From Agathobaculum butyriciproducens (GTDB lineage Bacteria > Bacillota > Clostridia > Oscillospirales > Butyricicoccaceae): 64,000 nt of DNA. Positions 5,389-21,100 of the stretch are shown one piece after another. Numbering within the stretch: the stretch's first letter is position 1; every line of letters begins with the position of its first letter. The position numbers and the translations under genes are program-made. The stretch spans positions 1 through 64,000 of the forward strand of contig QEKJ01000012.1 of NCBI GenBank assembly GCA_003096535.1, in the 5' to 3' direction. The notes under the pieces were generated by a model. That model searched no databases. It saw only the letters and a list, made by a program, of their open reading frames with translations, and had not been told where the DNA came from.

Positions 5389-5486
5389 ATTATAATTGTA
5401 AGGCAGCCGGTCAGGAGCCGAAGCTGTTGAATGACGAGCAGATCAGCTCGGTGCTGGAGGCATTCCAGACCTACCGACAGAAATAA
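5389..5486 (+). pseudogene. 3' tail of a sugar aldolase gene
   Basis: The last ~30 codons of a class II aldolase-like gene remain in the plus orientation: CKAAGQEPKLLNDEQISSVL followed by EAFQTYRQK and a stop. This resembles the C-terminal helix of the intact aldolase at 3856-4548 (SDAQIQQMVDVFQYY) but is a different sequence. Everything 5' of it has been replaced by minus-strand transketolase sequence, which marks a recombination or inversion breakpoint. Confidence 0.5.
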
Positions 5487-5507
5487 ATTTTGCAGGAGGG
5501 GACCATT

Positions 5508-5915
5508 ATGGAGGAAAAATGCGTATACTGCGGCGGTGATCTGCCGGAAAAGCCGACTAAGGTAAAGGTGCGCACACGCTCGTTTGAGGTGTGCTGTGCG
5601 GATTGTGCGGAAAAGACCGAACAGTATATCAAGCTGGATAAGCGATTCAAGACCGCACTGTATCTTCTGGTCTTTCTGGGCGGCATCGGATTTGTTATCA
5701 GTGCATTTTTCGGCGGTGACAGTCCGCTGCGCATGATCGGTGCGTATGCCGGTCAGCTTGTTGCGGGACTGACGTTTATCGCGTTTCCGTATCCGGTCAC
5801 CTCGTTTGAGAGCTTTCACGCGATGAGCATCCGCGGCGTAACGCGGCTGACGCGCATTATCGGCCTTGTGTTGAGCGTGTCGGCAGTCGTGCTGATAGTG
5901 CTCACGCTGCGATAA
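5508..5915 (+). CDS. Small zinc-ribbon membrane protein
   Basis: A 135-residue protein. The ATG at 5508 is preferred over the one at 5490 because GGAGGGG is then correctly spaced. The N-terminus has a four-cysteine zinc-ribbon pattern (CVYCGG, then VCCADC). Two hydrophobic segments follow at about 48-66 and 75-95, and a third at the C-terminus. It probably sits in the membrane with a cytosolic metal-binding knuckle. I know no named family. It lies immediately downstream of the truncated aldolase tail and may originally have been co-transcribed with that aldolase; its present promoter is unclear. Confidence 0.65.
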   Translation: MEEKCVYCGGDLPEKPTKVKVRTRSFEVCCADCAEKTEQYIKLDKRFKTALYLLVFLGGIGFVISAFFGGDSPLRMIGAYAGQLVAGLTFIAFPYPVTSFESFHAMSIRGVTRLTRIIGLVLSVSAVVLIVLTLR

Positions 5916-5958
5916 AGAAAATTGTGCGATCGGTCTGACGAAAGTAAGGTCTTTCCAT

Positions 5959-6000
5959 AACCCCAAAGGGCGCTCAAAAGAGCGCTCTTTGGGGTTCTTT
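5959..6000 (+). terminator. Intrinsic terminator
   Basis: AACCCCAAAGGGCGCTC pairs with GAGCGCTCTTTGGGGTT around a short A-rich loop, followed by CTTT. It terminates the zinc-ribbon gene. Confidence 0.8.
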
Positions 6001-6027
6001 GCAGGATTGTCTGAGGTGATGGAAAGC

Positions 6028-6065
6028 AAAAGGACAGAAGGGTCCAAGTACCTTCTGTCCTTTTG
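6028..6065 (+). terminator. Second hairpin with stem AAAAGGACAGAAGG
   Basis: CAAAAGGACAGAAGG pairs with CCTTCTGTCCTTTTG over an eight-base loop. Because of the T/A-rich stem ends it could work in either direction, including for decayed leftward genes. The core GGACRGAAGG/CCTTCTGTCC is shared with the terminator at 3737-3780. Confidence 0.65.
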
Positions 6066-7231: not shown

Positions 7232-8614
7232 TTACATTTCACCGCGCGCTTCACGCTCGGTGAGTTCCTTCATAATGGTGGGGTAAATCTTATCCAGCTT
7301 GTAGAACAGCAGGACGATAATGGCAACGATCCAAACGAGGATCGGACCGATTCTAAAGATAGAGGAAATCATTTGCTGGGCAGAAGTCGGCTGCATGGCA
7401 CCGCCGGTAACCGAGCTGAGGAAGCCTGCGCCCTCGAGCATGGCGGTCATAACCGCACTGGTGATGCCGGTGCCGATCTTAAAGCCGAGCGAGCCGCCGC
7501 CGAAGATCAGGCTTTCCTGACGCAGATGGCTCTTCCACTGACCGTACTCTACAACATCGCCCATCATGCCGAATACCAGAGAGGTCAGCGGAGCCTGACC
7601 GAGCGAGCGGATGATGGTCATTACCAGAATCCACCTGAAGCTCATCGGGTTTACCATAATGAGGGCATGGGCGATAACAACTACGATACAGCCGGCGAGC
7701 GACAGATTGCGCTTGTTGAATTTCTGCAGCAGCATCGGACACAGCAGCGCGCCAACGATCAGTGCGACGATCTCGGAGGTGTAAATGACGCTGTAATACC
7801 ATTCATCGTTGCCGAGAACATATTTGCAGTAGTACGGCAGGTCGGTGCCGATGATGGTGGTATGAACGCAGGTGACAGTCCACAGAATGAGCGTTGCCCA
7901 GAAATACGGGTTGCCAAGCAGCGCTTTAATCGCGCGGGAAGCGGGAACCTTGGGCTGCTCCTGTGCGGTGGATTCAAAATTAACGGTTTCCTTGCAGCGA
8001 ACAAAACAGATGACGAGCAGAGCAAGTGCGATGGCACACCAGATGCTCATGGTCTTGATCCAGGCGGCCTGATCGTTGCCGAACAGCTTGACGACCGGCA
8101 TAGTAAAGGTTACGGCAATGATCTTGCCGATCGGAGACAGTGCCATACGCACAACGGACAGCAGGTCGCGCTCGTGCGAGGAGCGGGTCATCATGGTGGA
8201 CAGGGTGCCGTAGGGCACGTTGATTGCGGTGTAGCATACGGTGGTGCACAGGTTATAAGTAACAAAAATGTACCAGAACTGAACGGTTGTGCTGCTGTGC
8301 GGCACACAGAACATCGCAACCGCGCACAGAACATACGGTACGCTCATCCATAAAATCCACGGACGGGCCTTACCCCATTTTGATTTGGTCTTGCTCACGA
8401 TGATGCCCATGATAACGTCGGACGAGCCGTCAAAAATACGCGAGATCAGCATGACCAGACCGACGGTAACGACCGGAATACCGCAGTAATCCGTATAGAA
8501 CAGGGTGAGCAGCGCGGTGATCATGCCGAACACAACGTTGCAGGCAGTGTCGCCTAAACCATAGGCAATGCGGGTTCCCCAGCCAAGGGAGGCAGTGTTG
8601 TTCTTTTCACTCAT
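7232..8614 (-). CDS. GPH-family sugar/inositol cation symporter
   Basis: A 460-residue MFS transporter of the glycoside-pentoside-hexuronide (MelB/UidB) type, with about 12 hydrophobic segments. Early motifs are GWGTRIAYGLGDTACN and FDGSSDVIMGIIVSKTKSKWG, the latter with the cation-site aspartates typical of GPH symporters. The ATG at 8614 follows AGAGGGG; the upstream TTG is less likely. It lies between iolG and iolI, so import of myo-inositol or another inositol by H+ or Na+ symport is the natural inference, although the family mainly carries sugars. A GC-rich hairpin separates it from iolG. Confidence 0.85.
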   Translation of the reverse strand: MSEKNNTASLGWGTRIAYGLGDTACNVVFGMITALLTLFYTDYCGIPVVTVGLVMLISRIFDGSSDVIMGIIVSKTKSKWGKARPWILWMSVPYVLCAVAMFCVPHSSTTVQFWYIFVTYNLCTTVCYTAINVPYGTLSTMMTRSSHERDLLSVVRMALSPIGKIIAVTFTMPVVKLFGNDQAAWIKTMSIWCAIALALLVICFVRCKETVNFESTAQEQPKVPASRAIKALLGNPYFWATLILWTVTCVHTTIIGTDLPYYCKYVLGNDEWYYSVIYTSEIVALIVGALLCPMLLQKFNKRNLSLAGCIVVVIAHALIMVNPMSFRWILVMTIIRSLGQAPLTSLVFGMMGDVVEYGQWKSHLRQESLIFGGGSLGFKIGTGITSAVMTAMLEGAGFLSSVTGGAMQPTSAQQMISSIFRIGPILVWIVAIIVLLFYKLDKIYPTIMKELTEREARGEM

Positions 8615-8649
8615 AAGGAGCAACCCCTCTTTCTCTTCTCAGAAAACGG

Positions 8650-8721: not shown

Positions 8722-9741
8722 TTACTCGATTTCGCTCAGCTTGACCGGACGGCCTTCCTTCATGGACAGGTTTGCTGCCATGGCGATCTTGACCGGCTGC
8801 AGACCGTCAAAACCGGTTACCAGCGTGTCGGTGTCGTTCAGAACGGCATCGGTGAACGCCTTTGCCTCTGCGATGAATGCGTTGTTGTAGCGCTCGAGGA
8901 AGAACCAGGTCGGCTTTGCAACCTCGACGCCTGCGGCAGAGGAGATCATGGCGGTGTTGTTCAGATCGTTTGCAACCTGCACGCAGCCCTGGTCGCAGTG
9001 AACCTCGGTGCGCTGGTCGTAGCCGTAGTGTGCGGCACGGGAGTTGTCGATCACGCCGAGTGCGCCGTTCTCGAACTTCATCATTACAATGGCGGTGTCC
9101 ACATCGCCGTATTCCTCGTAGCCTGCACCGGAGAGCGCTGCACCGTAAGCGGTAACCTCGGTAACCTCGCTGCTTGCCAGATAGCGAACCATGTCGAAAT
9201 CATGGATGGTCATGTCCATGAAGATACCGCCGGAAACCTTGATATAGCTCATCGGCTGATGATCAGGATCGCGGGAAGTGACCTTGATGAGATTGGGCTT
9301 GCCCAGCTTGCCGGAAGCGACCGTATCGCGGACGGCCTTGTGGTTGTGGTCAAAGCGGCGAACGAAGCCGACCTGCAGCTTAACGCCTGCCTTCTTTACC
9401 GCAGCGAGGGCTTCCTCGATCTTTGCCAGCTTGGTGTCGATCGGCTTCTCGCAGAAGATGTGCTTGCCGGTCTGCGCAGCGCGCATGATGAAGTCTGCAT
9501 GCGTTGCGGTGGAGGAGCAGATGAACACGGCCTCGATGGTCGGATCGCCAAAGATCATCTCGGGATCATCGTAGCACTTCTCAATACCCATGTCCGCTGC
9601 CCATGCGCGGGTCGCATCGTTCATGAACGGATCAGCCACTGCGTAGAGGTCTGCGTTCGGTACGGCATGTGCCAGATTTTCGCCGTGCAGCTTGCCGATT
9701 CTGCCTGCACCCAGCAGACCGATTCTTACCTTGTTTGCCAT
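8722..9741 (-). CDS. iolG: Inositol 2-dehydrogenase (Gfo/Idh/MocA family)
   Basis: A 339-residue NAD-dependent dehydrogenase. The N-terminal Rossmann fold begins VRIGLLGAGRIGKLHGENLA. The catalytic-loop EKPID follows at about residues 96-100, and the C-terminal alpha/beta domain contains a DMTIHDFDMVRYL stretch with the conserved Asp/His pair. Length and motifs fit inositol dehydrogenase (myo-inositol to 2-keto-myo-inositol); relatives with other polyol substrates cannot be excluded. The ATG at 9741 follows AAGGAG; the longer frame into the intergenic region is not needed. It is first in a leftward operon with symporter and iolI, divergent from an AraC regulator. Confidence 0.85.
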   Translation of the reverse strand: MANKVRIGLLGAGRIGKLHGENLAHAVPNADLYAVADPFMNDATRAWAADMGIEKCYDDPEMIFGDPTIEAVFICSSTATHADFIMRAAQTGKHIFCEKPIDTKLAKIEEALAAVKKAGVKLQVGFVRRFDHNHKAVRDTVASGKLGKPNLIKVTSRDPDHQPMSYIKVSGGIFMDMTIHDFDMVRYLASSEVTEVTAYGAALSGAGYEEYGDVDTAIVMMKFENGALGVIDNSRAAHYGYDQRTEVHCDQGCVQVANDLNNTAMISSAAGVEVAKPTWFFLERYNNAFIAEAKAFTDAVLNDTDTLVTGFDGLQPVKIAMAANLSMKEGRPVKLSEIE

Positions 9742-10069: not shown

Positions 10070-10945
10070 ATGGAAAACAAGCCGCGTAAACTGAGCGGAA
10101 CATTCTTCAACTGCATTTCGATCGACCGCAATTACAACAACCAGCAGTCTATACTTCCGCATATGCACGACGACCGTCTGGAGCTGTTCTATGTGTGCAG
10201 CGGACAAGGACAGTACATGGTGGATAACCGGTATTACCCGATTGGAGAGGGCGACATTGTTATCTGCAATCAGGGTGTGCTGCACGGCGAGGAACCCGAT
10301 CAGGTGCGGCAGATCCGGTCGTACAGCATCGCAATTACCGATGTCAATGCAGAAGGTCTGCCGCCTAACTGCCTGATTGCAGAAGGAGAGTATCCGGTTG
10401 TCTCGTGCGGACAGCTTGCCAGGCAGGTAGGCGAGACCATGCACCTGCTGTATCTGCTCAGCGCCGATGCGGGAAACCTGCATGCCGTGTGCTGCAGTCT
10501 GGCAGAGGCAATGCTGAATCTGACCGATTCCCTGCTCCGCAGTCGTATCCACCAGCAGGAGCAGCAGCGTGAAATGCCGTCTGTGCTGGCGCACCGCGTG
10601 CGGCGCTATCTGGATGCACACCACTGTGAGCCGATCACGCTGCGTATGGTGGCGGAGCGACTGCGCGTGAGCGAGTATTATCTGGCGCATGTGTTTAAGC
10701 AGGAGTTTGGCGTGCCGCCTATGCAGTATGTGATGAAACGCCGGATTGGTGAGGCGCAGGGTTTTCTGATGAATACCAGCATTCCAATCGCCGAGATTGC
10801 GGATACACTCGGCTTCAGCAGTATCTGTCACTTCAACGCCATGTTTAAGAAGTACACCGGCACACCGCCCGGCAAGTTCCGGCAGTCATTCAAGCAGAGC
10901 ATCACGCACAGCGAAAAAGGAAAAAGTGAAGAAAAGGAATCGTAA
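10070..10945 (+). CDS. AraC-family transcriptional regulator of the inositol locus
   Basis: A 291-residue regulator. The N-terminal half is a cupin-like sensor domain (HMHDDRLELFYVCSGQGQYM, then a GEGDIVICNQGVLH turn). The last ~100 residues form two helix-turn-helix motifs: ITLRMVAERLRVSEYYLAHV and IAEIADTLGFSSICHFNAMF, the latter followed by the GTPPGKFR signature. AGGAGGGAGC precedes the ATG. It lies between the divergent iolG operon and the iolD operon, so it most likely senses an inositol-derived ligand and controls both. The shared GTTAGAAG elements at three local promoters are candidate binding sites. Confidence 0.85.
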   Translation: MENKPRKLSGTFFNCISIDRNYNNQQSILPHMHDDRLELFYVCSGQGQYMVDNRYYPIGEGDIVICNQGVLHGEEPDQVRQIRSYSIAITDVNAEGLPPNCLIAEGEYPVVSCGQLARQVGETMHLLYLLSADAGNLHAVCCSLAEAMLNLTDSLLRSRIHQQEQQREMPSVLAHRVRRYLDAHHCEPITLRMVAERLRVSEYYLAHVFKQEFGVPPMQYVMKRRIGEAQGFLMNTSIPIAEIADTLGFSSICHFNAMFKKYTGTPPGKFRQSFKQSITHSEKGKSEEKES

Positions 10946-12017: not shown

Positions 12018-13970
12018 ATGAGCAAAACCAGAATGACAGTCGGTCAGGCGATCGTCAAGTTCCTGAACCAGCAGTACATTGAGATGGACGGCAAAGAGGA
12101 ACCCTTCGTAGACGGCATGTTCACGATCTTCGGTCACGGCATGGTAGTCGGTCTCGGACAGGCGCTGGAAGAGGATCCGGGCCACCTGAGAGTTTACCAG
12201 GGCCGCAACGAGCAGGGCATGGCACACGCCGCCATCAGCTACGCAAAGCAGCACAACCGCCGCAAGATCATCGCCTGCACCTCGTCCATCGGCGTTGGCG
12301 CAGCAAACATGGTAACCGCAGCACTGACCGCTACCATCAACAACATCCCGCTGCTGCTGTTCCCGTCCGATTACTTCGCAACCCGTCAGCCGGATCCGGT
12401 TCTCCAGCAGCTCGAGGTTCCGAACGACCTGTCCATGTCCGCTTCCGACTGCTTCAAGCCGGTTGCCAAGTACTGGGATCGCATTTCCCGTCCGGAGCAG
12501 CTGATGAGCGCGATGGTCAATGCAATGCGCGTCCTGACCGACACCGCAAACTGCGGCACGGCAGTTATCTCGCTCCCGCAGGATGTACAGGGTGAGAGCT
12601 TCGATTTTCCGGATTACTTCTTCCAGAAGCGCGTACATCACGTTGCACGCCGCGTAGCGGATGACTACGATATCGAGAAGGCAGTTGAGATGATCAAGGC
12701 TTCCAAGAAGCCGATGTTCATCGCAGGCGGCGGCGTTCGTTACTCCGAGGCCGGTCAGACCGCAATGGACTTCTGCAAGGCGTTCAACATTCCGGTTTCT
12801 CAGACCCAGGCCGGCCATTCCTGCCTGCCGGATTCGTTTGATCTGGCAGTCGGCGGCATCGGCGTAACCGGCGGTCTGGCGGCGAACGCACTCTGCAAGG
12901 ACTGCGACCTTGTTATCGGTGTCGGCACTCGTTTCAACGACTTCGTAACCGGCTCCAAGTGGGTGCTGTTCCGCAACCCGGATATTAAGGTTCTGGCAAT
13001 CAATACTTCCGAGTTCCACGCGGAAAAGCTGGACGCAACTCGCTGCATCGGCGACGCAAAGGTTACTCTCGAAGCGATCATGGCAAAGCTCAAGGCAGAC
13101 GGCTACAAGTCCGGCTACACCACCGAAATTCAGGATATCCGCAAGGTTTGGGAAGAAGAGCGTCTGCGCGTTCTGGGCGTTCAGTACAAGGGCGAGGGCT
13201 TCGGCGAGGGCAAGTTCGTACCGTGCGTTCCCAGCTGGACCGAGAAGATCATGAACGATTTCGTTGACCAGATCGGCGGCACCATCACCGAGTCCAACGC
13301 AGTCGGCATCCTCCGCGAGGAGGCAGACGACGACGCAATCGTGGTTGCAGCAGCAGGCTCGCTGCCGGCTGACCTCGAGCGTCTGTGGGTCACCGACGCA
13401 CCGAACTCCTACAATATGGAATACGGCGCTTCCTGCATGGGCTATGAGATCGCGGGTGCGTTCGGCGCCAAGCTGGCTGAGCCGGACAAGGAAGTTTACG
13501 CTCTGGTTGGTGACGGCTCCTTTATGATGCTCAACTCCGAGATCCCGACCGCAATGCAGGAGAATGCGAAGATCACCGTTGTTGTATTCGACAACTGCGC
13601 ATTCGGCTGCATCAACAACCTGCAGATGGGCAACGGCGTTGGCTCTCTGGCGACCGAAATGCGTCACCGCAACGAGACCACCGGCAAGCTGGACGGCGAC
13701 TACTGCTACACCGACTTCGGCAAGATCGGTGAGGGCTTCGGTATGAAGGCGTTCTACGCCAAGACTCCGGACGAATTCCGCAAGGCCGTTCAGGATGCTA
13801 AGAAGGAAAGCGTTTCCTGCATCATCGACGCAAAGGTTCTGCCCAAGACCATGGCGGAGGGCTACGAGTCCTGGTGGCACATCGGCGTGGCATCTACCTC
13901 CAAGTCTGATGAGGTAAAGGCTGCACGCAAGCGAATCGATGATCATCTGGCAGAAGCACGCATGTACTAA
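12018..13970 (+). CDS. iolD: 3D-(3,5/4)-trihydroxycyclohexane-1,2-dione hydrolase IolD
   Basis: A 650-residue ThDP-dependent enzyme that opens the inositol ring (trihydroxycyclohexanedione to 5-deoxy-glucuronate). The N-terminal pyrimidine-binding domain carries the catalytic glutamate in YQGRNEQGMAHAAISYA. The central domain has the FIAGGGVRYS loop. The C-terminal ThDP domain has GDGSFMMLNSEIPTAM followed by NCAFGCINN for Mg-diphosphate binding. The ATG at 12018 follows GAGGAGG; the longer frame starting at 11919 overlaps the promoter. Codons are strongly biased to optimal GC-ending forms, implying high expression. It opens the rightward operon and is followed by a hairpin and iolB. Confidence 0.92.
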   Translation: MSKTRMTVGQAIVKFLNQQYIEMDGKEEPFVDGMFTIFGHGMVVGLGQALEEDPGHLRVYQGRNEQGMAHAAISYAKQHNRRKIIACTSSIGVGAANMVTAALTATINNIPLLLFPSDYFATRQPDPVLQQLEVPNDLSMSASDCFKPVAKYWDRISRPEQLMSAMVNAMRVLTDTANCGTAVISLPQDVQGESFDFPDYFFQKRVHHVARRVADDYDIEKAVEMIKASKKPMFIAGGGVRYSEAGQTAMDFCKAFNIPVSQTQAGHSCLPDSFDLAVGGIGVTGGLAANALCKDCDLVIGVGTRFNDFVTGSKWVLFRNPDIKVLAINTSEFHAEKLDATRCIGDAKVTLEAIMAKLKADGYKSGYTTEIQDIRKVWEEERLRVLGVQYKGEGFGEGKFVPCVPSWTEKIMNDFVDQIGGTITESNAVGILREEADDDAIVVAAAGSLPADLERLWVTDAPNSYNMEYGASCMGYEIAGAFGAKLAEPDKEVYALVGDGSFMMLNSEIPTAMQENAKITVVVFDNCAFGCINNLQMGNGVGSLATEMRHRNETTGKLDGDYCYTDFGKIGEGFGMKAFYAKTPDEFRKAVQDAKKESVSCIIDAKVLPKTMAEGYESWWHIGVASTSKSDEVKAARKRIDDHLAEARMY

Positions 13971-13989
13971 TTAAACGCAGATTCAATAT

Positions 13990-14020
13990 GAGCCGCCCGT
14001 TTTCGGACGGGCGGCTTTCC
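13990..14020 (+). terminator. Hairpin between iolD and iolB
   Basis: GAGCCGCCCG pairs with CGGGCGGCTTTCC around a T-rich loop, followed by TTG. It is probably a partial terminator or a message-stabilising hairpin that sets iolD above the distal genes. Confidence 0.7.
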
Positions 14021-14080
14021 TTGTATATAAGGTATAGATACGCAATCTGGTATAGAGCAAAGAAAAGAGGAGCAAGAATT

Positions 14081-14872
14081 ATGAAATATACGCACAAGGC
14101 CCCCTTCGATAAGGGCTATAACGGCATGGTTTCGGCAGTTGAGCATCCGGAAATGATGGGCATGGAGTTCGGCGTGGTCAAGATGGCAGCCGGCGATGTG
14201 ATGCACTTCGACTATGCGCAGGAGGTTGTTTACGACCTGATGAGCGGCAGCGTGACCTTCGCATGGAACGGCAATTCCGAGACCGTTACCCGCAAAGACG
14301 TGTTCCATGAGGGTGCGATCCTGCTGCATGTGCCGCAGAATACCAGAGTGACCATCTCTGCCGAGAGTGACGCGGAGATTGCAGTATCCCGCACGGAAAA
14401 CAAGCGCGATTTCGCGGCTCGTCTGCTGCGTCCGGAGGATTGCCTGTGTGCAAACGAGGAGCGCGGCGCCGGTCAGATGAACGAGTGCTCGACCCGTCTG
14501 GTGCGCACGTTCTTTGACCGCTCCAACTGCCCGGAAACCAACTTCTTTATCGGTGAAGTGGTGCATTTCCCCGGCAAGTGGTCCTCTTATCCGCCGCATC
14601 AGCACGTTGAGCCGGAGCTGTACTACTACAAGTTCCTGCCGGAAAACGGCTACGGTCTGGCAGAATATGGCGACGATGCCTTCAAGGTTAAGAACAACGA
14701 CCTGACCGGCATGCCGGAAAATGTAACGCACTCTCAGGCCGCTGCGCCCGGCTATGCGGAGTATTACCTGTGGTGCATCCGTCTGCAGGACGACAAGAAC
14801 ATCGTGACCACCGTTGTACCCGAGTATGAGTGGGTGACCAAGGCGGACGCGAAGTATTTCCCGGACATTTAA
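14081..14872 (+). CDS. iolB: 5-deoxy-glucuronate isomerase IolB
   Basis: A 263-residue two-cupin protein. It converts 5-deoxy-D-glucuronate to 5-dehydro-2-deoxy-D-gluconate (DKG). The metal-binding cupin signature is visible in the C-terminal half as YPPHQHVEPELYYYKF, followed by ENGYGLAEYG and AAPGYAEYYLWCIRLQ. Length is as expected (about 260-275). GAGGAG precedes the ATG at 14081; the longer frame would begin inside the hairpin. The next gene, an iron alcohol dehydrogenase, starts only 14 bp later, which ties this cluster's unusual downstream enzymes to IolB. Confidence 0.9.
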   Translation: MKYTHKAPFDKGYNGMVSAVEHPEMMGMEFGVVKMAAGDVMHFDYAQEVVYDLMSGSVTFAWNGNSETVTRKDVFHEGAILLHVPQNTRVTISAESDAEIAVSRTENKRDFAARLLRPEDCLCANEERGAGQMNECSTRLVRTFFDRSNCPETNFFIGEVVHFPGKWSSYPPHQHVEPELYYYKFLPENGYGLAEYGDDAFKVKNNDLTGMPENVTHSQAAAPGYAEYYLWCIRLQDDKNIVTTVVPEYEWVTKADAKYFPDI

Positions 14873-14886
14873 GGGAGGCAAGCGGC

Positions 14887-16008
14887 ATGAAAGCATTTAA
14901 GATCGTTCCCTCTATCGCGGAGTATATGGATTTCCGCACGCTGGCGAAGGAATTAAACCTCGGCGAACGTGACCTGATTCTGACGAATGAATATATTTAC
15001 AATCCGACGATTGCGGCACTGAATCTCGGCTGCCATACCTGTTTTCAGGAAAAGTTTGGCGGCGGTGAGCCGACCGACATTATGGTTGACGCCATCCTCG
15101 ACGACCTGCGCGGCAAGGAGTTTGACCGTATTATCGCGGTCGGCGGCGGCACCGTTATCGACATTGCCAAGGTGTTGACCGTTGCCAAGGCCACCGACCG
15201 TGTGGACGATCTGTACGACCGCATGGCAAACCTCGAGAAGGAGCATGAGCTGATCATCGTGCCGACTACCTGCGGCACCGGCTCTGAGGTTACCAACATT
15301 TCCATCATCAACCGCACCACTAAGGGTGTCAAGGTCGGTCTGGTATCGCCCGCGATGTTCGCGGATGAGGCGGCGCTCGTGCCCGGTATGCTGCTCAGCC
15401 TGCCGTATCCGGTGTTCGCGACTTCTTCCATCGATGCGATGGTCCACGCGGTGGAGAGCTATCTCTCTCCGAATGCGTGTGCACTGAGCGAGCTGTTCTC
15501 CGCCAAGGCGCTGCACCTCATCCTGTCCTGCTGGAAGGACGCTGTTGCAGCGGGCGGCAAGGATGCGTGGAAGAAGCATGCACTTGAGTTTCTGCGCGCC
15601 TCCAACTACGCAGGTATCGCGTTCGGCCATGCAGGCTGCGCGGCTGTTCACGCGATGGCATATCCGCTCGGCGGCGTGCACCATATTCCGCATGGGCAGG
15701 CAAATCAGCTGATGTTCGCGGATGTCATGCGCAAGTACCAGGAAAAGAAGCCGATTGGAAAGCTGAATCAGCTGGAAGAACTTCTGGGTGCAGAACTGGA
15801 CGTAGAACCGGTATTTTCGCTTGAAAACCTGTACAAATTGATGGACGAGGTATTGAAAAAGGATCCCCTGCACGAACACGGAGTAACCGCTGACGAGCTG
15901 CCGGTCTTTGCAAAGAATGTCATTGAAACCCAGCAGCGCCTGCTCGGCAACAACTATGTGGAGCTGTCCGAGGACGATCTGCTCGACATTTACCGCAAGG
16001 CATTTTAA
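14887..16008 (+). CDS. Iron-containing alcohol dehydrogenase (4-hydroxybutyrate dehydrogenase-like)
   Basis: A 373-residue group III alcohol dehydrogenase. NAD-site motifs are AVGGGTVIDIAKV and PTTCGTGSEVTN. The metal site has HAVESYLSPNA and the double-histidine segment HIPHGQANQLMF after FGHAGCAAVHAMAYPLGG. Close relatives reduce succinate semialdehyde to 4-hydroxybutyrate. It begins 14 bp after iolB and ends 16 bp before a 4-hydroxybutyrate-type CoA-transferase, so its product is probably that enzyme's substrate. Candidates are 4-hydroxybutyrate, 3-hydroxypropionate, or, as argued in the findings, 3,4-dihydroxybutyrate from an inositol-derived aldehyde. Confidence 0.88.
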   Translation: MKAFKIVPSIAEYMDFRTLAKELNLGERDLILTNEYIYNPTIAALNLGCHTCFQEKFGGGEPTDIMVDAILDDLRGKEFDRIIAVGGGTVIDIAKVLTVAKATDRVDDLYDRMANLEKEHELIIVPTTCGTGSEVTNISIINRTTKGVKVGLVSPAMFADEAALVPGMLLSLPYPVFATSSIDAMVHAVESYLSPNACALSELFSAKALHLILSCWKDAVAAGGKDAWKKHALEFLRASNYAGIAFGHAGCAAVHAMAYPLGGVHHIPHGQANQLMFADVMRKYQEKKPIGKLNQLEELLGAELDVEPVFSLENLYKLMDEVLKKDPLHEHGVTADELPVFAKNVIETQQRLLGNNYVELSEDDLLDIYRKAF

Positions 16009-16024
16009 CTGCGGAGGGACAAGC

Positions 16025-17332
16025 ATGGATTGGAGAACGTATTATAAGGAGCACACGATGACCCCGGAACAGGCGGTCAGTGTGATCCATGACGGCGACC
16101 GCGTGGTATTCGGCCATGCGGTAGGCGAGCCGATCATCTTTCAGCGTACGATGGCGCGCATGGCAGAGCAGTTCCACAATGTGGAGGTCGCTCACATGGT
16201 TTATCTCGGCTCGGGCGAGTATCTGCAGCCCGGCATGGAGAGCCATTTCCGTCATAACGCGCTGTTCGTCGGCGGCCCGGCGCGCAAGCCCATTGCCGAG
16301 CACCGCGCGGACTACACCCCGGTGTTCTTCTCGGACGTACCGCGTATGTTCCGCGACAACACCCTGCCGGTGGACGTTTTCGCGTTCACCTGCTCGCCTC
16401 CGGACGAGCGCGGCTACGTTTCGCTCGGCCTGTCGTGCGATTACGGCGCACAGGCGGTCAAATCTGCGAAAACCGTTATCGCTGAGGTAAACCCGAATAT
16501 GCCGCGCACCTATGGCGAGAGCTTTGTGCACGTTTCCGAGATCGACGGCTTCCTGTGCTCGTGGGAGCCGCTGCCCGAGTCCAAGCCGCCCAGGATCGGT
16601 GAGGAGGACCGCGCCATCGGCAAGTACATTGCCGAGCTCGTGCGCGACGGTGACTGCCTGCAGCTCGGCATCGGTGCGGTGCCGGATGCGGTCTGCTCGT
16701 TCCTCGGCGACAAACACGACCTCGGCCTGCACACCGAGATGATCTCGGACGGCGTGCTGCCGCTGCTTGAAAACGGCAACATTAACGGCAAGCGCAAGCA
16801 GCGCGACGTCGGCAAGGTGAGCGTCACCTTCCTGATGGGCACGCGCAAGCTGTACGATTTCGTGGATAATAACCCGATTATTAACATGCTTCCGGTGGAT
16901 GTCTGCAACAATCCGGCGGTTATCGCGGAGAACGACAACGTGGTTTCCATTAACTCCTGCGTCGAGGTCGATCTGCAGGGGCAGGTCTGTGCCGAGGCGA
17001 TCGGCCTGCGCCAGATTTCCGGCATCGGCGGCCAGATGGACTTTGTGCGCGGCGCAAACTTGTCCAAGGGCGGCCGTTCCATCATTGCGCTGCACTCGAC
17101 CACCAAGGACGAGTCTGCATCTAAGATTGTTACAACCATCACCACCGGCGGTCCGGTTACCACTAGCCGCTGCGATGTCAATTATATTGTCACCGAGTAC
17201 GGCGTGGCGCAGCTTCGCGGTCAAACGCTCCGCGAGCGCGCAAAGCGTCTGATTGCCATTGCGCATCCAAAATTCCGCGAAGAACTTGCCGAGGAATTCG
17301 AGAAGCGCTTCGGTGAAAAACTCAAGGTGTAA
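16025..17332 (+). CDS. 4-hydroxybutyrate-type CoA-transferase
   Basis: A 435-residue family I CoA-transferase of the acetyl-CoA hydrolase/4-hydroxybutyrate CoA-transferase group. The likely catalytic glutamate is in LHTEMISDGVLPLL. The C-terminal oxyanion/CoA region has GIGGQMDFVRGANLSKGG and the tail VTEYGVAQLRGQT. It should swap CoA from acetyl-CoA or butyryl-CoA onto a short hydroxy acid. GGAGGG stands six bases before the ATG at 16025. It lies between a matching dehydrogenase and a 4-hydroxybutyryl-CoA dehydratase, the same trio as in gamma-aminobutyrate-fermenting clostridia, but here inside an inositol operon. Confidence 0.9.
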   Translation: MDWRTYYKEHTMTPEQAVSVIHDGDRVVFGHAVGEPIIFQRTMARMAEQFHNVEVAHMVYLGSGEYLQPGMESHFRHNALFVGGPARKPIAEHRADYTPVFFSDVPRMFRDNTLPVDVFAFTCSPPDERGYVSLGLSCDYGAQAVKSAKTVIAEVNPNMPRTYGESFVHVSEIDGFLCSWEPLPESKPPRIGEEDRAIGKYIAELVRDGDCLQLGIGAVPDAVCSFLGDKHDLGLHTEMISDGVLPLLENGNINGKRKQRDVGKVSVTFLMGTRKLYDFVDNNPIINMLPVDVCNNPAVIAENDNVVSINSCVEVDLQGQVCAEAIGLRQISGIGGQMDFVRGANLSKGGRSIIALHSTTKDESASKIVTTITTGGPVTTSRCDVNYIVTEYGVAQLRGQTLRERAKRLIAIAHPKFREELAEEFEKRFGEKLKV

Positions 17333-17369
17333 CCAATTAAAATGCAACATACAGCAGGGGGTCATAACG

Positions 17370-17483
17370 ATGAAAAAGACATTCTCCCGTTTTCAAATCG
17401 CCTATATTCATGTGATTTTGCTGCTGCTGATCATGCTCTCCGGCTGGTGCGTTTATATCACAAGCCTGATGCTGAGCGTATAA
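17370..17483 (+). CDS. 37-residue single-helix membrane peptide
   Basis: A short frame between the CoA-transferase and the dehydratase. It encodes MKKTFSRFQIAYIHVILLLL then a continuing hydrophobic stretch ending in LMLSV. AGGGGGT lies nine bases before the ATG. A positively charged N-terminus followed by ~20 apolar residues predicts one transmembrane helix with the N-terminus inside. It is in the operon direction, 37 bp after the CoA-transferase stop. No known family. It could help dock a transporter or redox partner, but no function can be read. Confidence 0.5.
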   Translation: MKKTFSRFQIAYIHVILLLLIMLSGWCVYITSLMLSV

Positions 17484-17636
17484 TTTCGTGGATATGCGCC
17501 GAAAAACCGATTTTTCTGCTATTCTCATTACAAATCAGACTATTCCCTTCATGTCTCCTCAAATATGTTATAAAAATCGGTGAATCGGCGCTTTTTCCTA
17601 TTGCAAAGAAAGAAAAAGGACAAGGAAGATGATATT

Positions 17637-19082
17637 ATGATGACAAAAGACCAGTACATCGACTCTCTGCGGGGGCTGCACCTGAACCTGTACAGCTTCG
17701 GCAAGAAGGTTGAAAACGTAGTGGACAACCCGATCGTTCGTCCGTCGCTCAACTCGTTTGCGGCAACGTACGAGCTGGCAGAGGACCCGCAGTACGAAGA
17801 TCTGATGACAGCCACCTCCAATCTGACCGGCAAAAAGGTAAACCGCTTCACCCACCTGCATCAGTCCACGGACGACCTCATCAAAAAGGTAAAGATGCAG
17901 CGCCTGCTCGGCCAGAAGACCGCAGCGTGCTTCCAGCGCTGTGTCGGCATGGATGCCGCTAACGCGGTTTACTCCACCACCTTTGAGACCGACGAGGCTT
18001 GCGGCACCAAGTACCACGAGAATTTCGTCAAGTTCTGGACCGATGTGCAGAACAACGATTGGGGCGTTGACGGCGCTATGACCGACGTTAAGGGCGACCG
18101 CGGTCTGTCTCCGTCCAAGCAGGCCGACCCGGATTTGTTCCTGCACGTTGTCGAGCGCACCGCGGACGGCGTTTACGTTACCGGCGCAAAGGCGCACCAG
18201 ACTGGCTACCTGAACAGCCATTATGTTCTGGTTATGCCGACCATCTCCATGCGTGAGGGCGACGAGGACTACGCAATTTCCTTCGCATGCCCGACCGACG
18301 CGGAAGGCATCACCCTGATTCTGGGCCGTCAGTCCTGTGACACCCGCAAGACCGAGGAACATAACGACATCGACGTCGGCAACAAGGTTTACGGCGGTCA
18401 CGAGGTTCTGGTTATTTTCGACCGTGTATTCATTCCGAACGACATGATCTTCCTCAACGGCGAAACCCAGTTTGCCGGCATGATGGTAGAGCGCTTCGCA
18501 GGCTATCACCGTCAGTCCTACGGCGGCTGCAAGGTCGGCGTTGGCGATGTGCTCATCGGCGCTACCGCGCTGGCAGGTGAGATGGCGGGCTCGGCCAAGG
18601 CTTCTCATGTCAAGGACAAGCTCATCGAGATGACCCACCTGAACGAAACCCTGTACTGCTGCGGCATTGCATGCTCGTCTCAGGGCACCAAGACCAAGAG
18701 CGGCAACTACCTGATCGACCTGCTGCTGGCAAACGTCTGCAAGCAGAACGTCACCCGCTTCCCGTATGAGATCGCTCGTCTGGCACAGGATCTGGCCGGC
18801 GGCATCATGGTAACCCAGCCGTCCGAGGCGGATTACCGCAACCCGGCAACCCACGCTTACATCGAGAAGTACCTCAAGGGTGTGGCTTCCGTGCCCACCG
18901 AGGATCGTATGCGCCTGCTGCGCCTGATCGAGAATATGACGATGGGCACCGCCGCAGTCGGCTATCTGCCGGAGTCCATGCACGGCGCAGGTTCTCCGCA
19001 GGCTCAGCGCATCATGATCGCCCGTCAGTCCAACATGGAAATGAAGAAGGAACTGGCGAAGAAGATCGCAAGAATCAAGTAA
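17637..19082 (+). CDS. abfD: 4-hydroxybutyryl-CoA dehydratase / vinylacetyl-CoA isomerase
   Basis: A 481-residue flavin and [4Fe-4S] enzyme of the 4-hydroxyphenylacetate 3-hydroxylase fold. All four cluster ligands known from the Clostridium aminobutyricum enzyme (Cys99, Cys103, His292, Cys299) are present one residue earlier: Cys98 and Cys102 in TAACFQRCVGMDAAN, His291 and Cys298 in GYHRQSYGGCKVG. The family dehydrates 4-hydroxybutyryl-CoA to crotonyl-CoA by a ketyl-radical mechanism. Either of two adjacent ATGs (17637, 17640) can serve after AAGGAAG. Embedded between inositol and transketolase genes, it may act on a hydroxylated analogue. Activity class is confident; natural substrate is open. 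Confidence 0.9.
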   Translation: MMTKDQYIDSLRGLHLNLYSFGKKVENVVDNPIVRPSLNSFAATYELAEDPQYEDLMTATSNLTGKKVNRFTHLHQSTDDLIKKVKMQRLLGQKTAACFQRCVGMDAANAVYSTTFETDEACGTKYHENFVKFWTDVQNNDWGVDGAMTDVKGDRGLSPSKQADPDLFLHVVERTADGVYVTGAKAHQTGYLNSHYVLVMPTISMREGDEDYAISFACPTDAEGITLILGRQSCDTRKTEEHNDIDVGNKVYGGHEVLVIFDRVFIPNDMIFLNGETQFAGMMVERFAGYHRQSYGGCKVGVGDVLIGATALAGEMAGSAKASHVKDKLIEMTHLNETLYCCGIACSSQGTKTKSGNYLIDLLLANVCKQNVTRFPYEIARLAQDLAGGIMVTQPSEADYRNPATHAYIEKYLKGVASVPTEDRMRLLRLIENMTMGTAAVGYLPESMHGAGSPQAQRIMIARQSNMEMKKELAKKIARIK

Positions 19083-19191
19083 TTTCTGTGAAAGCTGCGG
19101 CACAGGAGAAGCTCTGGCGGTTCCATGTCAAAAATGGAGTATGTCTAACCGGCAGGGCGGACCCGAAACGCAGCCTCACCGATAAAAACTG

Positions 19192-19232
19192 ACAAGACCC
19201 GTCCTTTTTATTGCGGAAGGGCGGGTTTTGTT
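19192..19232 (+). terminator. Hairpin between the dehydratase and the transketolase genes
   Basis: AAGACCCGTCCTT pairs imperfectly with AAGGGCGGGTTTTG, followed by TT. Probably leaky, since the same-strand transketolase genes follow at once and no clear new promoter is seen. Confidence 0.6.
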
Positions 19233-19262
19233 CTGCAAACCGTAATTTCAAGGAGGAAAGCA

Positions 19263-20114
19263 ATGGATAAGCAAAAACTGCACGAGCTGCGTGTGTTTGC
19301 GACGGAAATCCGTCTGGAAACGCTCAAGGTGATCGCGTCCCGCGGTTTTGGTCACGTTGGCGGCTCTATGTCGATGGCGGACGCAATGGCCGTTCTGTAC
19401 GGCGAGGTCATGCACATCGACCCGAAGAATCCCCACTGGGAGGACCGCGACTGGTTCGTTCTGTCCAAGGGACACGGCGGCCCGGTCATGTACGCAACGC
19501 TCGGCCTCAAGGGATATTACCCGATGGAGAGCGCCTACACGCTCAACCAGCCGAACACGGATTTCCCGTCCCACACTGACCGCAGCAAGACCATCGGCGT
19601 TGACCTGACGACCGGTTCGCTCGGTCAGGGTATGAGCGAAGCCATCGGCGCCGCACTCGGCAGCCGCGTGCAGAACCGTCCGAGCCGTGTTTACGTTGCC
19701 GTAGGCGACGGTGAGTGCGATGAGGGCCAGATCTGGGAAGGCGCACAGTTTGCCGCGCACTACAAGCTGGATAACCTCGTATGTCTCGTAGACAACAACG
19801 GCCGTCAGCTGGACGGCGCAGTTGCCGATGTTATGAGCCACGGCAAGGGTATCGGCGCCAAGTTTGACGCATTCGGCTGGAACGTTATCGACGTAGCCGA
19901 CGGTAACGACGTAGAGCAGATCTTGGGCGCGCTCGAGCAGGCGAAGGCGTGCAAGGGCAAGCCGACCTGCCTGATTCTGAACACGGTAAAGGGCAAGGGA
20001 GCAACCTTTGCCGAGCCGTCCGGCGCACATTCTTCGCAGCCGACTAAGGAGCAGTGGGATGAAGCGATTGCCGCATCCGAAGCCGCTCTGGCTGCAGTGA
20101 AAAACGAAAAGTAA
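19263..20114 (+). CDS. Transketolase, N-terminal (ThDP-binding) subunit
   Basis: A 283-residue protein corresponding to the first domain of transketolase. Motifs: GHVGGSMSMADAMAVLYGEV, LSKGHGGPVMYATL, a ThDP diphosphate motif GDGECDEGQIWEGA followed by CLVDNNG, and a C-terminal TVKGKGATFAE with the usual substrate-phosphate-side HSSQPTKEQW. GGAGG precedes the ATG at 19263. The second subunit follows 14 bp later. Split transketolases of this kind are common in clostridia and archaea. Ending the inositol operon with a dedicated transketolase is unusual and points to a two-carbon transfer in the pathway (see findings). Confidence 0.9.
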   Translation: MDKQKLHELRVFATEIRLETLKVIASRGFGHVGGSMSMADAMAVLYGEVMHIDPKNPHWEDRDWFVLSKGHGGPVMYATLGLKGYYPMESAYTLNQPNTDFPSHTDRSKTIGVDLTTGSLGQGMSEAIGAALGSRVQNRPSRVYVAVGDGECDEGQIWEGAQFAAHYKLDNLVCLVDNNGRQLDGAVADVMSHGKGIGAKFDAFGWNVIDVADGNDVEQILGALEQAKACKGKPTCLILNTVKGKGATFAEPSGAHSSQPTKEQWDEAIAASEAALAAVKNEK

Positions 20115-20128
20115 GGGAGGGGAAAACA

Positions 20129-21100
20129 ATGAGTTTTACTTTGATCGGCAAGCATGAAAAGGATAGCCGCGCCAACCGCGACGGCTATGTAGAAGCCATG
20201 CTCGAAATGATGGCGGAGAACCCAAAGCTGGTGCATATCGACTGCGACCTGATGGGCTGCATCAACACCGGAAAGCTGCTGAAGGCGTTCCCGGCCCAGA
20301 CCTTTAACGCAGGCATCGCGGAGCAGAACGCGATGGGCGTTGCCTCCGGCATGGCAGCCACCGGCCTGACCGTGTTCGCGCACTCGTTTGGCTGCTTTGC
20401 TGCCCGCCGCATGTTCGATCAGGCATTTCTGGCAGCGGGCTACTCTGAGCTGCCGGTGCATGTCATCGGTTCCGACCCGGGTGTCTGCGCAGCATTCAAC
20501 GGCGCAACTCATATGCCGTTTGAGGACTGTGCGCTGTACATGAACATCCCGAACGCAGTCGTTATCGACTCGTGCGATTTTGCACAGACCAAGGCACTGA
20601 CCAGGAAGCTGGCTGCCTGCGGCAGCCCGTCCTACATGCGCCTGATCCGCAAGGGCTTTACCACGGTTTACGCGGATGGCTCTGATTTTGAGATCGGCAA
20701 GGGCGTTACGCTGCGTGACGGCAAGGACGTGACCATTATTGCCTCCGGTATTTTGGTAGACGAGGCACTCAAGGCCGAAGAAATGCTGGCAGCAAAGGGT
20801 ATTTCTGCCCGCGTGATCGACATGCACACCTGGAAGCCGCTTGACGAGGAGCTGGTGCTCCGCGCGGCTGCAGAGACCGGCTGCATCGTCACAGCGGAGA
20901 ACCATCAGGTCGGCACCGGCCTCGGCTCTGCCATTACCAACCTGACGAGCGCAAAGAATCCGGTTCCGGTGGAGCGCATCGGCATCCAGAACCGCTTCGG
21001 TCAGGTCGGTCCGCAGGATTTCCTTATGCAGCAGTATAACCTCACTGCAGAGGATATCGTGGCGGCGGCTCTGCGCGCCATTGCCCGCAGGCAGGGATAA
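20129..21100 (+). CDS. Transketolase, C-terminal (pyrimidine-binding) subunit
   Basis: A 323-residue partner of the preceding gene. The catalytic glutamate of the pyrimidine domain is in FNAGIAEQNAMGVASGMAAT; CNGATHMPFEDCALYM-like and RLIRKGF segments follow; the C-terminal domain shows VIDMHTWKPLDEE and TAENHQVGTGLGSAI. Together the two subunits form a complete ThDP enzyme moving a ketol unit between sugar phosphates or similar ketoses. AGGGAGGGG precedes the ATG. A strong terminator follows, so this gene closes the operon. A different transketolase survives only as a fragment at 5040-5388. Confidence 0.9.
   Translation: MSFTLIGKHEKDSRANRDGYVEAMLEMMAENPKLVHIDCDLMGCINTGKLLKAFPAQTFNAGIAEQNAMGVASGMAATGLTVFAHSFGCFAARRMFDQAFLAAGYSELPVHVIGSDPGVCAAFNGATHMPFEDCALYMNIPNAVVIDSCDFAQTKALTRKLAACGSPSYMRLIRKGFTTVYADGSDFEIGKGVTLRDGKDVTIIASGILVDEALKAEEMLAAKGISARVIDMHTWKPLDEELVLRAAAETGCIVTAENHQVGTGLGSAITNLTSAKNPVPVERIGIQNRFGQVGPQDFLMQQYNLTAEDIVAAALRAIARRQG

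What the first reader, a model, noticed from the sequence alone, without database searches (positions are those of the whole stretch)
12018..21100. Possible transketolase-based inositol pathway ending in acetoacetyl-CoA
Seen: iolD and iolB are followed in one direction by an Fe-alcohol dehydrogenase (14 bp after iolB), a 4-hydroxybutyrate-type CoA-transferase, a 4-hydroxybutyryl-CoA dehydratase and both halves of a transketolase. The usual DKG kinase (IolC) and DKG-phosphate aldolase (IolJ) are not in the window. Known: the IolB product DKG is, read from C6, a 2-ketose acid with hydroxyls on the next two carbons, the shape transketolase uses; transketolase would move C5-C6 to an acceptor and leave 3-hydroxy-4-oxobutanoate. 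Inference: the dehydrogenase reduces this to 3,4-dihydroxybutyrate, the transferase makes its CoA ester, and the dehydratase removes the 4-hydroxyl to give 3-hydroxycrotonyl-CoA, the enol of acetoacetyl-CoA, a direct entry to butyrate. Every gene would then have a role and no ATP-consuming kinase is needed. I know of no description of this route.
Basis: partly seen in the sequence, partly recalled or inferred. Interest (0 to 1): 0.88.

Follow-up and report, generated by a model that had tools for sequence, protein, structure and literature searches.

The report
Transketolase route for inositol breakdown
A gut bacterium carries a gene set that looks built to cut an inositol breakdown product with a transketolase and turn the four-carbon piece into the butyrate precursor acetoacetyl-CoA, without the usual kinase, which would explain how some gut bacteria turn dietary inositol into butyrate.

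Summary
In detail: iolD, iolB, Fe-alcohol dehydrogenase (ADH), CoA-transferase, a 4-hydroxybutyryl-CoA dehydratase homologue (AbfD) and both halves of a split transketolase (TK) lie co-directionally at 12018-21100. One premise fails genome-wide: this genome has a separate classical iolC-iolJ operon. The route itself gains support. In the family, 48 of 87 genomes have iolB, 5 of 87 iolC; 15 of 19 genomes with window-type iolB lack iolC. Faecalicatena contorta, in another family, has the set assembled from diverged genes, followed by thiolase, crotonase, 3-hydroxybutyryl-CoA dehydrogenase, PPi-phosphofructokinase and aldolase. Five other Clostridia join TK, iolB and iolD to GAPDH and PGK paralogues, four also to a malate racemase, as expected if TK makes D-malate semialdehyde. 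In 63 iolB+iolD loci, TK, transaldolase and iolC never share a locus; 17 have none. Against: two carriers kept ADH but lack AbfD and TK beside it, and no activity is shown. Best reading: a kinase-free inositol pathway, analogous to sulfo-TK sulfoglycolysis, ending in acetoacetyl-CoA; my searches found no description.

The parts
7232..8623 (-). GPH-family cation symporter, probable cyclitol transporter of the divergent operon
   Evidence: TIGR00792 315 bits, cut-off 231; next to iolG in relatives too
8722..9741 (-). iolG, inositol 2-dehydrogenase
   Evidence: TIGR04380 437.6 bits, cut-off 355; start at 9741 chosen by me
10070..10945 (+). AraC-family regulator between the two divergent gene sets
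   Evidence: Pfam HTH_18, AraC_binding
12018..13970 (+). iolD, trihydroxycyclohexane-1,2-dione hydrolase
   Evidence: TIGR04377 866.5 bits, cut-off 715
14081..14872 (+). iolB, 5-deoxy-glucuronate isomerase of a divergent kind (product DKG)
   Evidence: Pfam KduI/IolB; TIGR04378 103.9 bits, under cut-off 205; H173, H175, E177, E179, H217 invariant in 12 sequences
14887..16008 (+). Fe-alcohol dehydrogenase; inferred 3-hydroxy-4-oxobutanoate reductase
   Evidence: Pfam Fe-ADH and ADH_Fe_C; no NCBIfam cut-off reached
16025..17332 (+). CoA-transferase, 4-hydroxybutyrate type; inferred to activate 3,4-dihydroxybutyrate
   Evidence: Pfam AcetylCoA_hydro and AcetylCoA_hyd_C; H-T-E-M motif
17637..19082 (+). 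AbfD homologue; inferred 3,4-dihydroxybutyryl-CoA dehydratase giving 3-hydroxycrotonyl-CoA (enol of acetoacetyl-CoA)
   Evidence: 1u8v match 1.4e-223; C98, C102, H291, C298 kept
19263..20114 (+). transketolase N-half (TPP-binding)
   Evidence: Pfam Transketolase_N
20129..21100 (+). transketolase C-half; inferred to split DKG
   Evidence: Pfam Transket_pyr and Transketolase_C; sugar-head residues RCFDR

Best explanation
A kinase-free inositol pathway. IolG (window), IolE (elsewhere in the genome), IolD and IolB make 2-deoxy-5-keto-D-gluconate (DKG). The dedicated split transketolase takes carbons 5-6 of DKG and hands them to an aldose phosphate, feeding the pentose phosphate and glycolytic pools. 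It leaves (R)-3-hydroxy-4-oxobutanoate (D-malate semialdehyde). The Fe-ADH reduces this to 3,4-dihydroxybutyrate, the CoA-transferase makes the CoA ester, and the AbfD homologue removes the 4-hydroxyl to give the enol of acetoacetyl-CoA, which enters butyrate formation. Shown: gene content, conserved clustering, absence of iolC in most carriers, independent re-assembly in other families. Inferred: every substrate and product from DKG onward.
For: (1) Seven-gene cluster conserved in Agathobaculum and sister genera. Of 19 genomes with window-type iolB, 15 lack iolC (11 of these 15 are at least 90% complete); 12 of 19 also have the window-type TK C-half, and only G000 of these 12 has iolC, against 3 of the other 7. 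(2) Independent assembly in F. contorta, with thl-crt-hbd, PPi-PFK and FBA downstream: what acetoacetyl-CoA and TK-derived sugar phosphates need. (3) TK+iolB+iolD with type II GAPDH and a PGK homologue in L174, L176, L181, L182, L195, with a malate-racemase-type LarA next to it in four of these five (not seen in L174, whose contig ends soon after iolD); iolC not found in the four genomes tested. Each of the five genomes has a second, ordinary PGK; in the iol-linked copies the Arg65-equivalent is Asp or Ser. (4) TK, TAL and iolC never share a locus in 63 iolB+iolD loci. (5) The same ADH-TK-CoAT-AbfD module recurs with a glycyl radical enzyme, an ALDH and an MDR dehydrogenase, genes that could also make a 2-deoxy-5-keto-hexonate. 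(6) TK head-group residues RCFDR/RSFDR resemble RAFDR of sulfofructose TK, against RSFHR (PMC11659671 section 3.4). (7) Stereochemistry, by hand from recalled structures: DKG read from C6 has the D-threo arrangement of xylulose 5-phosphate. (8) Donor B faeces made [13C4]butyrate and [13C2]acetate from [13C6]phytate with no other intermediate, Butyricicoccus among the most abundant taxa (PMC7618129 section 5).
Against: No enzyme activity, expression or growth data for these genes. G000 and F. contorta also have iolC, so they do not strictly need the route. Two carriers, G002 and G007, have iolB-ADH followed by a CoA-transferase (a fragment in G002, full length in G007) but no AbfD or TK beside it, with no contig end there; G007 has no TK C-half match at E<=1e-60 at all. 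G003 and G004 have iolB-ADH-CoAT-AbfD without iolD or TK. In I. massiliensis no TK lies at the iolD-iolB locus. The H-to-D change in TK also occurs in 9 of 9 TKs of iolB-less relatives that I read (L214-L222), so it is not diagnostic. The cluster AbfD is 90% identical to the canonical-locus copy, with no active-site change that I saw. No iolE lies beside the window cluster in this genome. Butyricicoccus was also abundant in donor A, which made propionate, and uniform 13C label cannot tell an intact C4 unit from two acetyl-CoA.
Confidence: 0.68

Rival explanations
1. The TK splits DKG as proposed, but ADH, CoA-transferase and AbfD are an ordinary 4-hydroxybutyrate fermentation module (succinate semialdehyde to crotonyl-CoA) that merely sits beside it; the C4 aldehyde goes elsewhere.
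For: AbfD is 90% identical to the canonical-locus copy and keeps all cluster ligands; the ADH is in the same broad Fe-ADH family as the canonical one; iolB-ADH-CoAT(-AbfD) also occurs without TK in G003, G004 and G007; thl, crt and hbd also lie beside the canonical AbfD.
Against: G000 already has a canonical AbfD/ADH locus on contig 2. The window ADH and CoAT are only 43% and 39% identical to the canonical-locus ADH and butyryl-CoA:acetate CoA-transferase. The AbfD-ADH-CoAT set travels with TK in three contexts (window type, F. contorta, glycyl-radical clusters).
Confidence: 0.15
2. The cluster is accessory to the classical route: iolD and iolB feed DKG to the IolC/IolJ encoded on contig 11, and the TK only handles sugar phosphates.
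For: A complete iolC-iolJ operon exists in G000; G002, G003 and G004 have iolC as well.
Against: The contig 11 operon has its own iolB, iolD, iolE and regulator; 15 of 19 carriers lack iolC; iolC and TK never share a locus. In G002 the TK cluster has decayed while the iolC/iolJ operon is present.
Confidence: 0.1
3. The substrate is another cyclitol or a 2-deoxy-5-keto acid isomer rather than DKG from myo-inositol, with the same TK logic.
For: IolB is below its family cut-off; G000 holds three iolB-like genes with iolD beside each, and five iolE over the cut-off, which suggests several cyclitol substrates.
Against: iolD and iolG are over their curated cut-offs; iolG of F. contorta's locus is 78% identical to the window's.
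Confidence: 0.07

Closest known systems
Sulfo-transketolase (sulfo-TK) sulfoglycolysis (SqwGH and partners; PMC11659671, passages and section 3.4 seen)
   Same: Split TK removes C2 units from an unphosphorylated acid ketose and gives them to glyceraldehyde 3-phosphate; an acid aldehyde is left and reduced or oxidised. The H-to-D change in the TK head-group site is shared.
   Different: Substrate is DKG (carboxylate) from inositol, not sulfofructose; one TK step, not two; product goes to CoA chemistry and AbfD, or to malate.
Classical inositol pathway (IolG-E-D-B-C-J-A)
   Same: iolG, iolE, iolD, iolB.
   Different: No kinase or DKG-phosphate aldolase in the cluster; C4+C2 split instead of C3+C3.
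Anaerostipes inositol-to-propionate pathway (PMC8355322, passages seen)
   Same: Gut anaerobe, inositol, CoA-transferase; G000's contig 11 operon resembles it (iolC, iolJ, two CoA-transferase subunits).
   Different: Window cluster lacks IolC/IolJ and has TK and AbfD; predicted product butyrate.
4-Hydroxybutyrate fermentation (AbfD, AbfT, 4-hydroxybutyrate dehydrogenase)
   Same: Homologues of all three enzymes.
   Different: Here tied to iolB and TK; substrate inferred to carry a 3-hydroxyl and to give acetoacetyl-CoA instead of crotonyl-CoA.

Membership tests
Classical IolC/IolJ inositol pathway | iolC and iolJ in the same locus | tested here: not met
   Absent from the window cluster; present in a separate operon on contig 11; iolC over the curated cut-off in only 5 of 87 family genomes; iolJ was not searched genome-wide
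Classical IolC/IolJ inositol pathway | iolG, iolD, iolB present | tested here: met
   IolB by Pfam only, below the NCBIfam cut-off
Sulfo-TK-like pathway | Dedicated split transketolase in the catabolic cluster | tested here: met
Sulfo-TK-like pathway | TK acts on an unphosphorylated acid ketose | not testable with these tools
   Needs enzyme assay; RCFDR motif is compatible but also seen in TKs of iolB-less genomes
Sulfo-TK-like pathway | Sulfosugar substrate genes (SQ isomerase and the like) | not tested
   No targeted search for sulfoglycolysis genes was made; the cluster genes are iol genes, so I claim likeness of mechanism, not membership
4-Hydroxybutyryl-CoA dehydratase (AbfD) | [4Fe-4S] ligands C-x3-C and H-x6-C | tested here: met
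   residue roles recalled
4-Hydroxybutyryl-CoA dehydratase (AbfD) | 4-Hydroxybutyryl-CoA as physiological substrate | not testable with these tools
   Context argues for 3,4-dihydroxybutyryl-CoA
IolB | TIGR04378 equivalog cut-off | tested here: not met
   103.9 against 205 bits; IolB of the iolC operon also fails (73.3), so the model may be too narrow here
IolB | KduI/IolB fold family with invariant His/Glu of the metal site | tested here: met
   Pfam 166 bits; invariant H173, H175, E177, E179, H217 in 12 sequences; metal role recalled

The most novel reading that the evidence does not exclude
DKG is a branch point with three mutually exclusive ways to be split, parallel to sulfoglycolysis: kinase/aldolase (IolC/IolJ), transaldolase and transketolase. 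The TK version has two fates for D-malate semialdehyde: reduction and AbfD dehydration to acetoacetyl-CoA (butyrate), or oxidation by GAPDH-II and PGK paralogues with ATP gain to D-malate, then racemised. The same TK-AbfD module also serves a glycyl-radical-enzyme route from a polyol. This would be the missing inositol-to-butyrate pathway of the gut.
Probability: 0.55. Interest if true: 0.93.

Novelty: new variant of a known kind. Interest (0 to 1): 0.86.

Why it matters
A 2025 review states that the myo-inositol-to-butyrate pathway of gut bacteria is uncharacterised and names Dysosmobacter welbionis and Intestinibacillus massiliensis (unpublished data) as performers (PMC12482443 section 5). 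I. massiliensis lies in the family studied here, has iolD, iolB, a family-type TK and two AbfD genes, in separate loci, and shows no iolC over the cut-off. The cluster gives a concrete, testable route, spares one ATP per DKG, gives a new predicted substrate for a radical dehydratase, and suggests that inositol catabolism has the same three architectures as sulfosugar catabolism. It would also change how inositol use is predicted from genomes where iolC is taken as a marker.

Tried and rejected
TK active-site motif as a fingerprint of DKG use: rejected, because 9 of 9 TKs read from family genomes without an iolB match (L214-L222) carry the same Asp. AbfD sequence as a marker of new specificity: rejected, a window-type copy also sits in a canonical locus (L052). 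TK beside iolB/iolD in 9 loci of the roughly 70%-identical type (L077-L079, L081-L083, L109, L113, L114) as proof of the route: set aside, since that TK also occurs in G043, G044 and G047-G049, which lack iolB, and may be housekeeping. Without these 9, TK-linked loci fall from 25 to 16 of 63 and loci with none rise from 17 to 26. A small ORF between CoAT and AbfD (17370-17483): no counterpart in the gaps of six relatives. Promoter/terminator scan: 9 and 13 sites against 6.8 and 14.2 expected, nothing usable. The second PfkB kinase of G000 (contig 3, 199.5 bits to the IolC model): best match is fructokinase. One TK tree row (L056_5959) and one motif row (L055_5972) come from DXP-synthase-like genes and carry no meaning for the argument. 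I could not test D. welbionis by name. iolJ was not searched genome-wide; its absence elsewhere is inferred from iolC. Rows left out of the '19 genomes': G040 (122-residue fragment), G025 (71%), G050 (68%) and second, 63-67% copies in G054 and G055.


Full report
Observation. The iolB-to-ADH gap is 14 bp. IolB matches the KduI/IolB Pfam family well but is below the NCBIfam equivalog cut-off; so are the two other IolBs of the genome. A divergent GPH symporter, iolG and an AraC regulator lie upstream.

The genome. The window is contig 12 of a 2.8 Mb genome (99.7% complete). I place it in the genus Agathobaculum, family Butyricicoccaceae, from named relatives with matching contigs and my knowledge of their taxonomy, not from a record title for the window. 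Contig 11 carries a separate classical operon: iolC (347.7 bits, cut-off 300), iolJ, iolB, iolD, iolE, two CoA-transferase subunits and a DeoR regulator. Contig 2 carries a third iolB-iolD pair. Five iolE genes pass the cut-off.

Family survey. Of 87 family genomes, 48 have an iolB-like gene at E<=1e-20, 45 have AbfD at E<=1e-100 and 5 have iolC at E<=1e-70, all over the cut-off: G000, G002, G003, G004, G012. iolB and AbfD co-occur in 44; 4 have iolB only, 1 AbfD only, 38 neither (relatedness not corrected). Nineteen genomes have the window-type iolB at 83-100% identity; 4 of these have iolC (G000, G002, G003, G004), and 11 of the 15 without it are at least 90% complete. The complete seven-gene run lies on one contig in G000, G022, G006, G017, G041, G038 and G042; G054 is cut by a contig end inside the TK N-half. 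Of the 11 other carriers, six are cut by contig ends inside the run (G016, G024, G010, G033, G035, G055), mostly at AbfD; I suspect collapse of near-identical AbfD copies in assembly, which I did not test. Five depart from the pattern: G031 has the two halves of the run in two places (L102, L067); G003 and G004 have iolB-ADH-CoAT-AbfD without iolD or TK; G002, Agathobaculum desmolans by its contig, has only an 86-residue piece of the CoA-transferase after ADH and no AbfD or TK there; G007 has a full CoA-transferase followed by unrelated genes. The window-type TK C-half (82% identity or more) is found in 12 of the 19; G000 is the only one of these 12 with iolC, while 3 of the other 7 have it.

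Independent assembly. Faecalicatena contorta NLAE-zl-C134 has GntR | TKN-TKC-iolB-ADH-AbfD-CoAT-iolD-thl-crt-hbd-PFK-FBA, a TIM-barrel gene and two other frames, then AraC, iolE, MocA, iolG and GPH, over about 23 kb. Identities to the window: TK C-half 47%, TK N-half 53%, ADH 43%, CoAT 52%, AbfD 70%, iolB 59%, iolD 65%. PFK is over the cut-off of the diphosphate-dependent subfamily and FBA over one class II FBA cut-off; thl is over the acyltransferase cut-off, while crt and hbd best match short-chain enoyl-CoA hydratase and 3-hydroxybutyryl-CoA dehydrogenase models below their cut-offs. Thiolase, crotonase and hbd genes also lie beside AbfD in the canonical locus (L070), so they are consistent with, not proof of, acetoacetyl-CoA. 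This genome also has iolC elsewhere. Clostridium minihomine has TKN-TKC-iolB-ADH beside iolD-iolE-iolG-GPH, with no AbfD in the stretch held, and no iolC over the cut-off.

A second fate of the same product. In a class-wide sample, 17 of 391 genomes, G000 among them, matched the F. contorta IolB at E<=1e-50. I fetched all 18 loci outside G000. Five have TK (L170, L174, L176, L181, L182), five a transaldolase-like gene (L171, L172, L178, L179, L180), five iolC (L183-L186, L189) and three none (L173, L175, L177). In the order-wide search 37 of 394 genomes matched; I fetched all 12 loci outside the family: six have iolC, one TK (L195), and five an iolB-like gene without iolD. Four TK loci of the class sample (L174, L176, L181, L182), and L195, also hold a type II GAPDH and a PGK homologue; a LarA of the malate racemase type is found in L176, L181, L182 and L195, not in L174. 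The curated cut-offs were tested on the L182 copies only: GAPDH 414 against 185, LarAH6 malate racemase 588 against 500. L175 has GAPDH and PGK, and L177 LarA, with iol genes but no TK in the stretch. D-malate semialdehyde is glyceraldehyde 3-phosphate with a carboxylate in place of the phosphate ester, so these enzymes fit oxidation to malyl phosphate, ATP formation and D-malate, with racemisation to L-malate (inference). Each of the five genomes has an ordinary PGK besides the iol-linked one. The position equivalent to yeast Arg65 (role recalled) is Asp in L174, L176, L181 and L182, Ser in L195, and Arg or Lys in the ordinary copies; one Ser copy in G433 (L211) is not in the iol locus that I fetched. 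iolC was not found at E<=1e-60 in G476, G192, G363 and G326; G429 has it in another locus; G786 was not searched.

Exclusivity. In 63 non-redundant loci with iolB and iolD, TK is present in 25, iolC in 16, transaldolase in 5, none in 17, and never two of the three. Nine of the 25 are the less certain kind named under Tried and rejected. Of the 17, seven are window-type clusters cut by a contig end on the TK side (L086, L087, L089, L092, L094, L095, L100), three lie near a contig end (L110, L115, L177) and seven are not cut (L004, L085, L091, L097, L102, L173, L175). By rough arithmetic, five TK neighbours in 18 loci by chance has probability 3e-6 to 6e-4, for two to six TK pairs per 3 Mb genome.

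TK history. In the TK C-half tree the window clade sits inside the family's TKs, the F. contorta and C. minihomine TKs are sister to a clade with the TKs of the glycyl-radical clusters (100/98), and four malate-type TKs plus L170 form another clade (98/85); L195 lies apart on a long branch. The fork that joins these clades is unresolved. I read this as at least two, probably three, recruitments of TK to inositol genes. In G038 a window-type TK N-half fragment and in G033 both window-type halves lie beside the ALDH-GRE-SSS genes, as if one TK activity served both routes.

The other front end. L057, L058, L061, L062, L064 and L068 carry ADH, MDR dehydrogenase, AbfD, CoAT, a glycyl radical enzyme and its activase, with an ALDH in all but L068 and a TK in all (window-type fragment in L062), and no iolB or iolD in the stretches held. 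A diol dehydratase on a hexitol, then ALDH, then 5-dehydrogenation would give a 2-deoxy-5-keto-hexonate, the same kind of substrate. This is inference: the L064 GRE and MDR pass no specific cut-off, and the MDR's best models are threonine 3-dehydrogenase (222 bits), scyllo-inosose 3-dehydrogenase IolM (217) and idonate 5-dehydrogenase (178), so a cyclitol dehydrogenase is also possible.

Chemistry, by hand and from recall: DKG seen from C6 has the D-threo 3,4-diol next to the ketone that transketolase prefers, and the remaining carbinol has the D (R) configuration of glyceraldehyde 3-phosphate; oxidation gives D-malate. I recall that AbfD removes the pro-S hydrogen at C3, which is the one left in the (R)-3,4-dihydroxy compound; one search did not let me verify this.

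Literature. Among the rows listed by the full-text searches over open PMC papers I saw no title or abstract start describing a TK- or transaldolase-based inositol pathway (none held the terms; 9: 20 of 228 listed; 34: 20 of 20; 52: 1 of 1; 53: 15 of 1354; 57: 5 of 5; 72: 10 of 21). Subscription papers and preprints were not covered. The review PMC12482443 (section 5 read) calls the inositol-to-butyrate pathway not yet fully characterised. PMC7618129 (section 5 read) reports [13C4]butyrate and [13C2]acetate from [13C6]phytate in donor B, with Butyricicoccus among the most abundant taxa of its enrichment, as also in donor A. PMC11659671 (passages and section 3.4) describes sulfo-TK and the RAFDR motif. 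PMC8355322 (passages) describes the propionate route.

Verdict. All reaction assignments beyond iolB are inferred.

Noticed in passing
L057, L058, L061, L062, L064, L068: Clusters with glycyl radical enzyme and activase, MDR dehydrogenase, Fe-ADH, CoA-transferase, AbfD and TK (ALDH in all but L068), without iolB/iolD; possibly a polyol-to-butyrate route through a 2-deoxy-5-keto-hexonate.
   Followed up: partly
L171, L172, L178, L179, L180: Transaldolase-family gene inside iolB-iolD-iolE-iolG operons, with an IolA/MMSDH-like (L178-L180) or SauS-like acylating dehydrogenase (L171, L172) and no iolC over the cut-off in the genome; suggests a transaldolase version of inositol breakdown.
   Followed up: partly
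L174, L176, L181, L182, L195: TK plus type II GAPDH and archaeal-type PGK paralogue in iol loci, with a LarA of the malate racemase type in all but L174.
   Followed up: yes
window 4878-6047 (-): Open frame whose end matches a transketolase C-terminal domain (49 bits); looks like a remnant of another TK, next to an L-ribulose-5-phosphate 4-epimerase-like gene at 3856-4548 (189 bits, cut-off 251).
   Followed up: partly
window 17370-17483 (+): 37-codon hydrophobic ORF between CoA-transferase and AbfD; no counterpart in the same gap of six relatives.
   Followed up: yes
G000 contigs 4, 9, 11, 22, 30: Five iolE genes over the curated cut-off in one genome, which hints at several cyclitol substrates.
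   Followed up: no
L055, L056 (G004, G003): iolB-ADH-CoAT-AbfD beside a Zn-dehydrogenase and branched-chain-type ABC transporter genes, without iolD or TK; another use of the C4 module.
   Followed up: no
L076 13.7-14.7 kb (G001): A very divergent second TK pair (34-38%) with an MDR dehydrogenase and GPH transporter near the iolB locus; its head-group residues are RGFYP.
   Followed up: no
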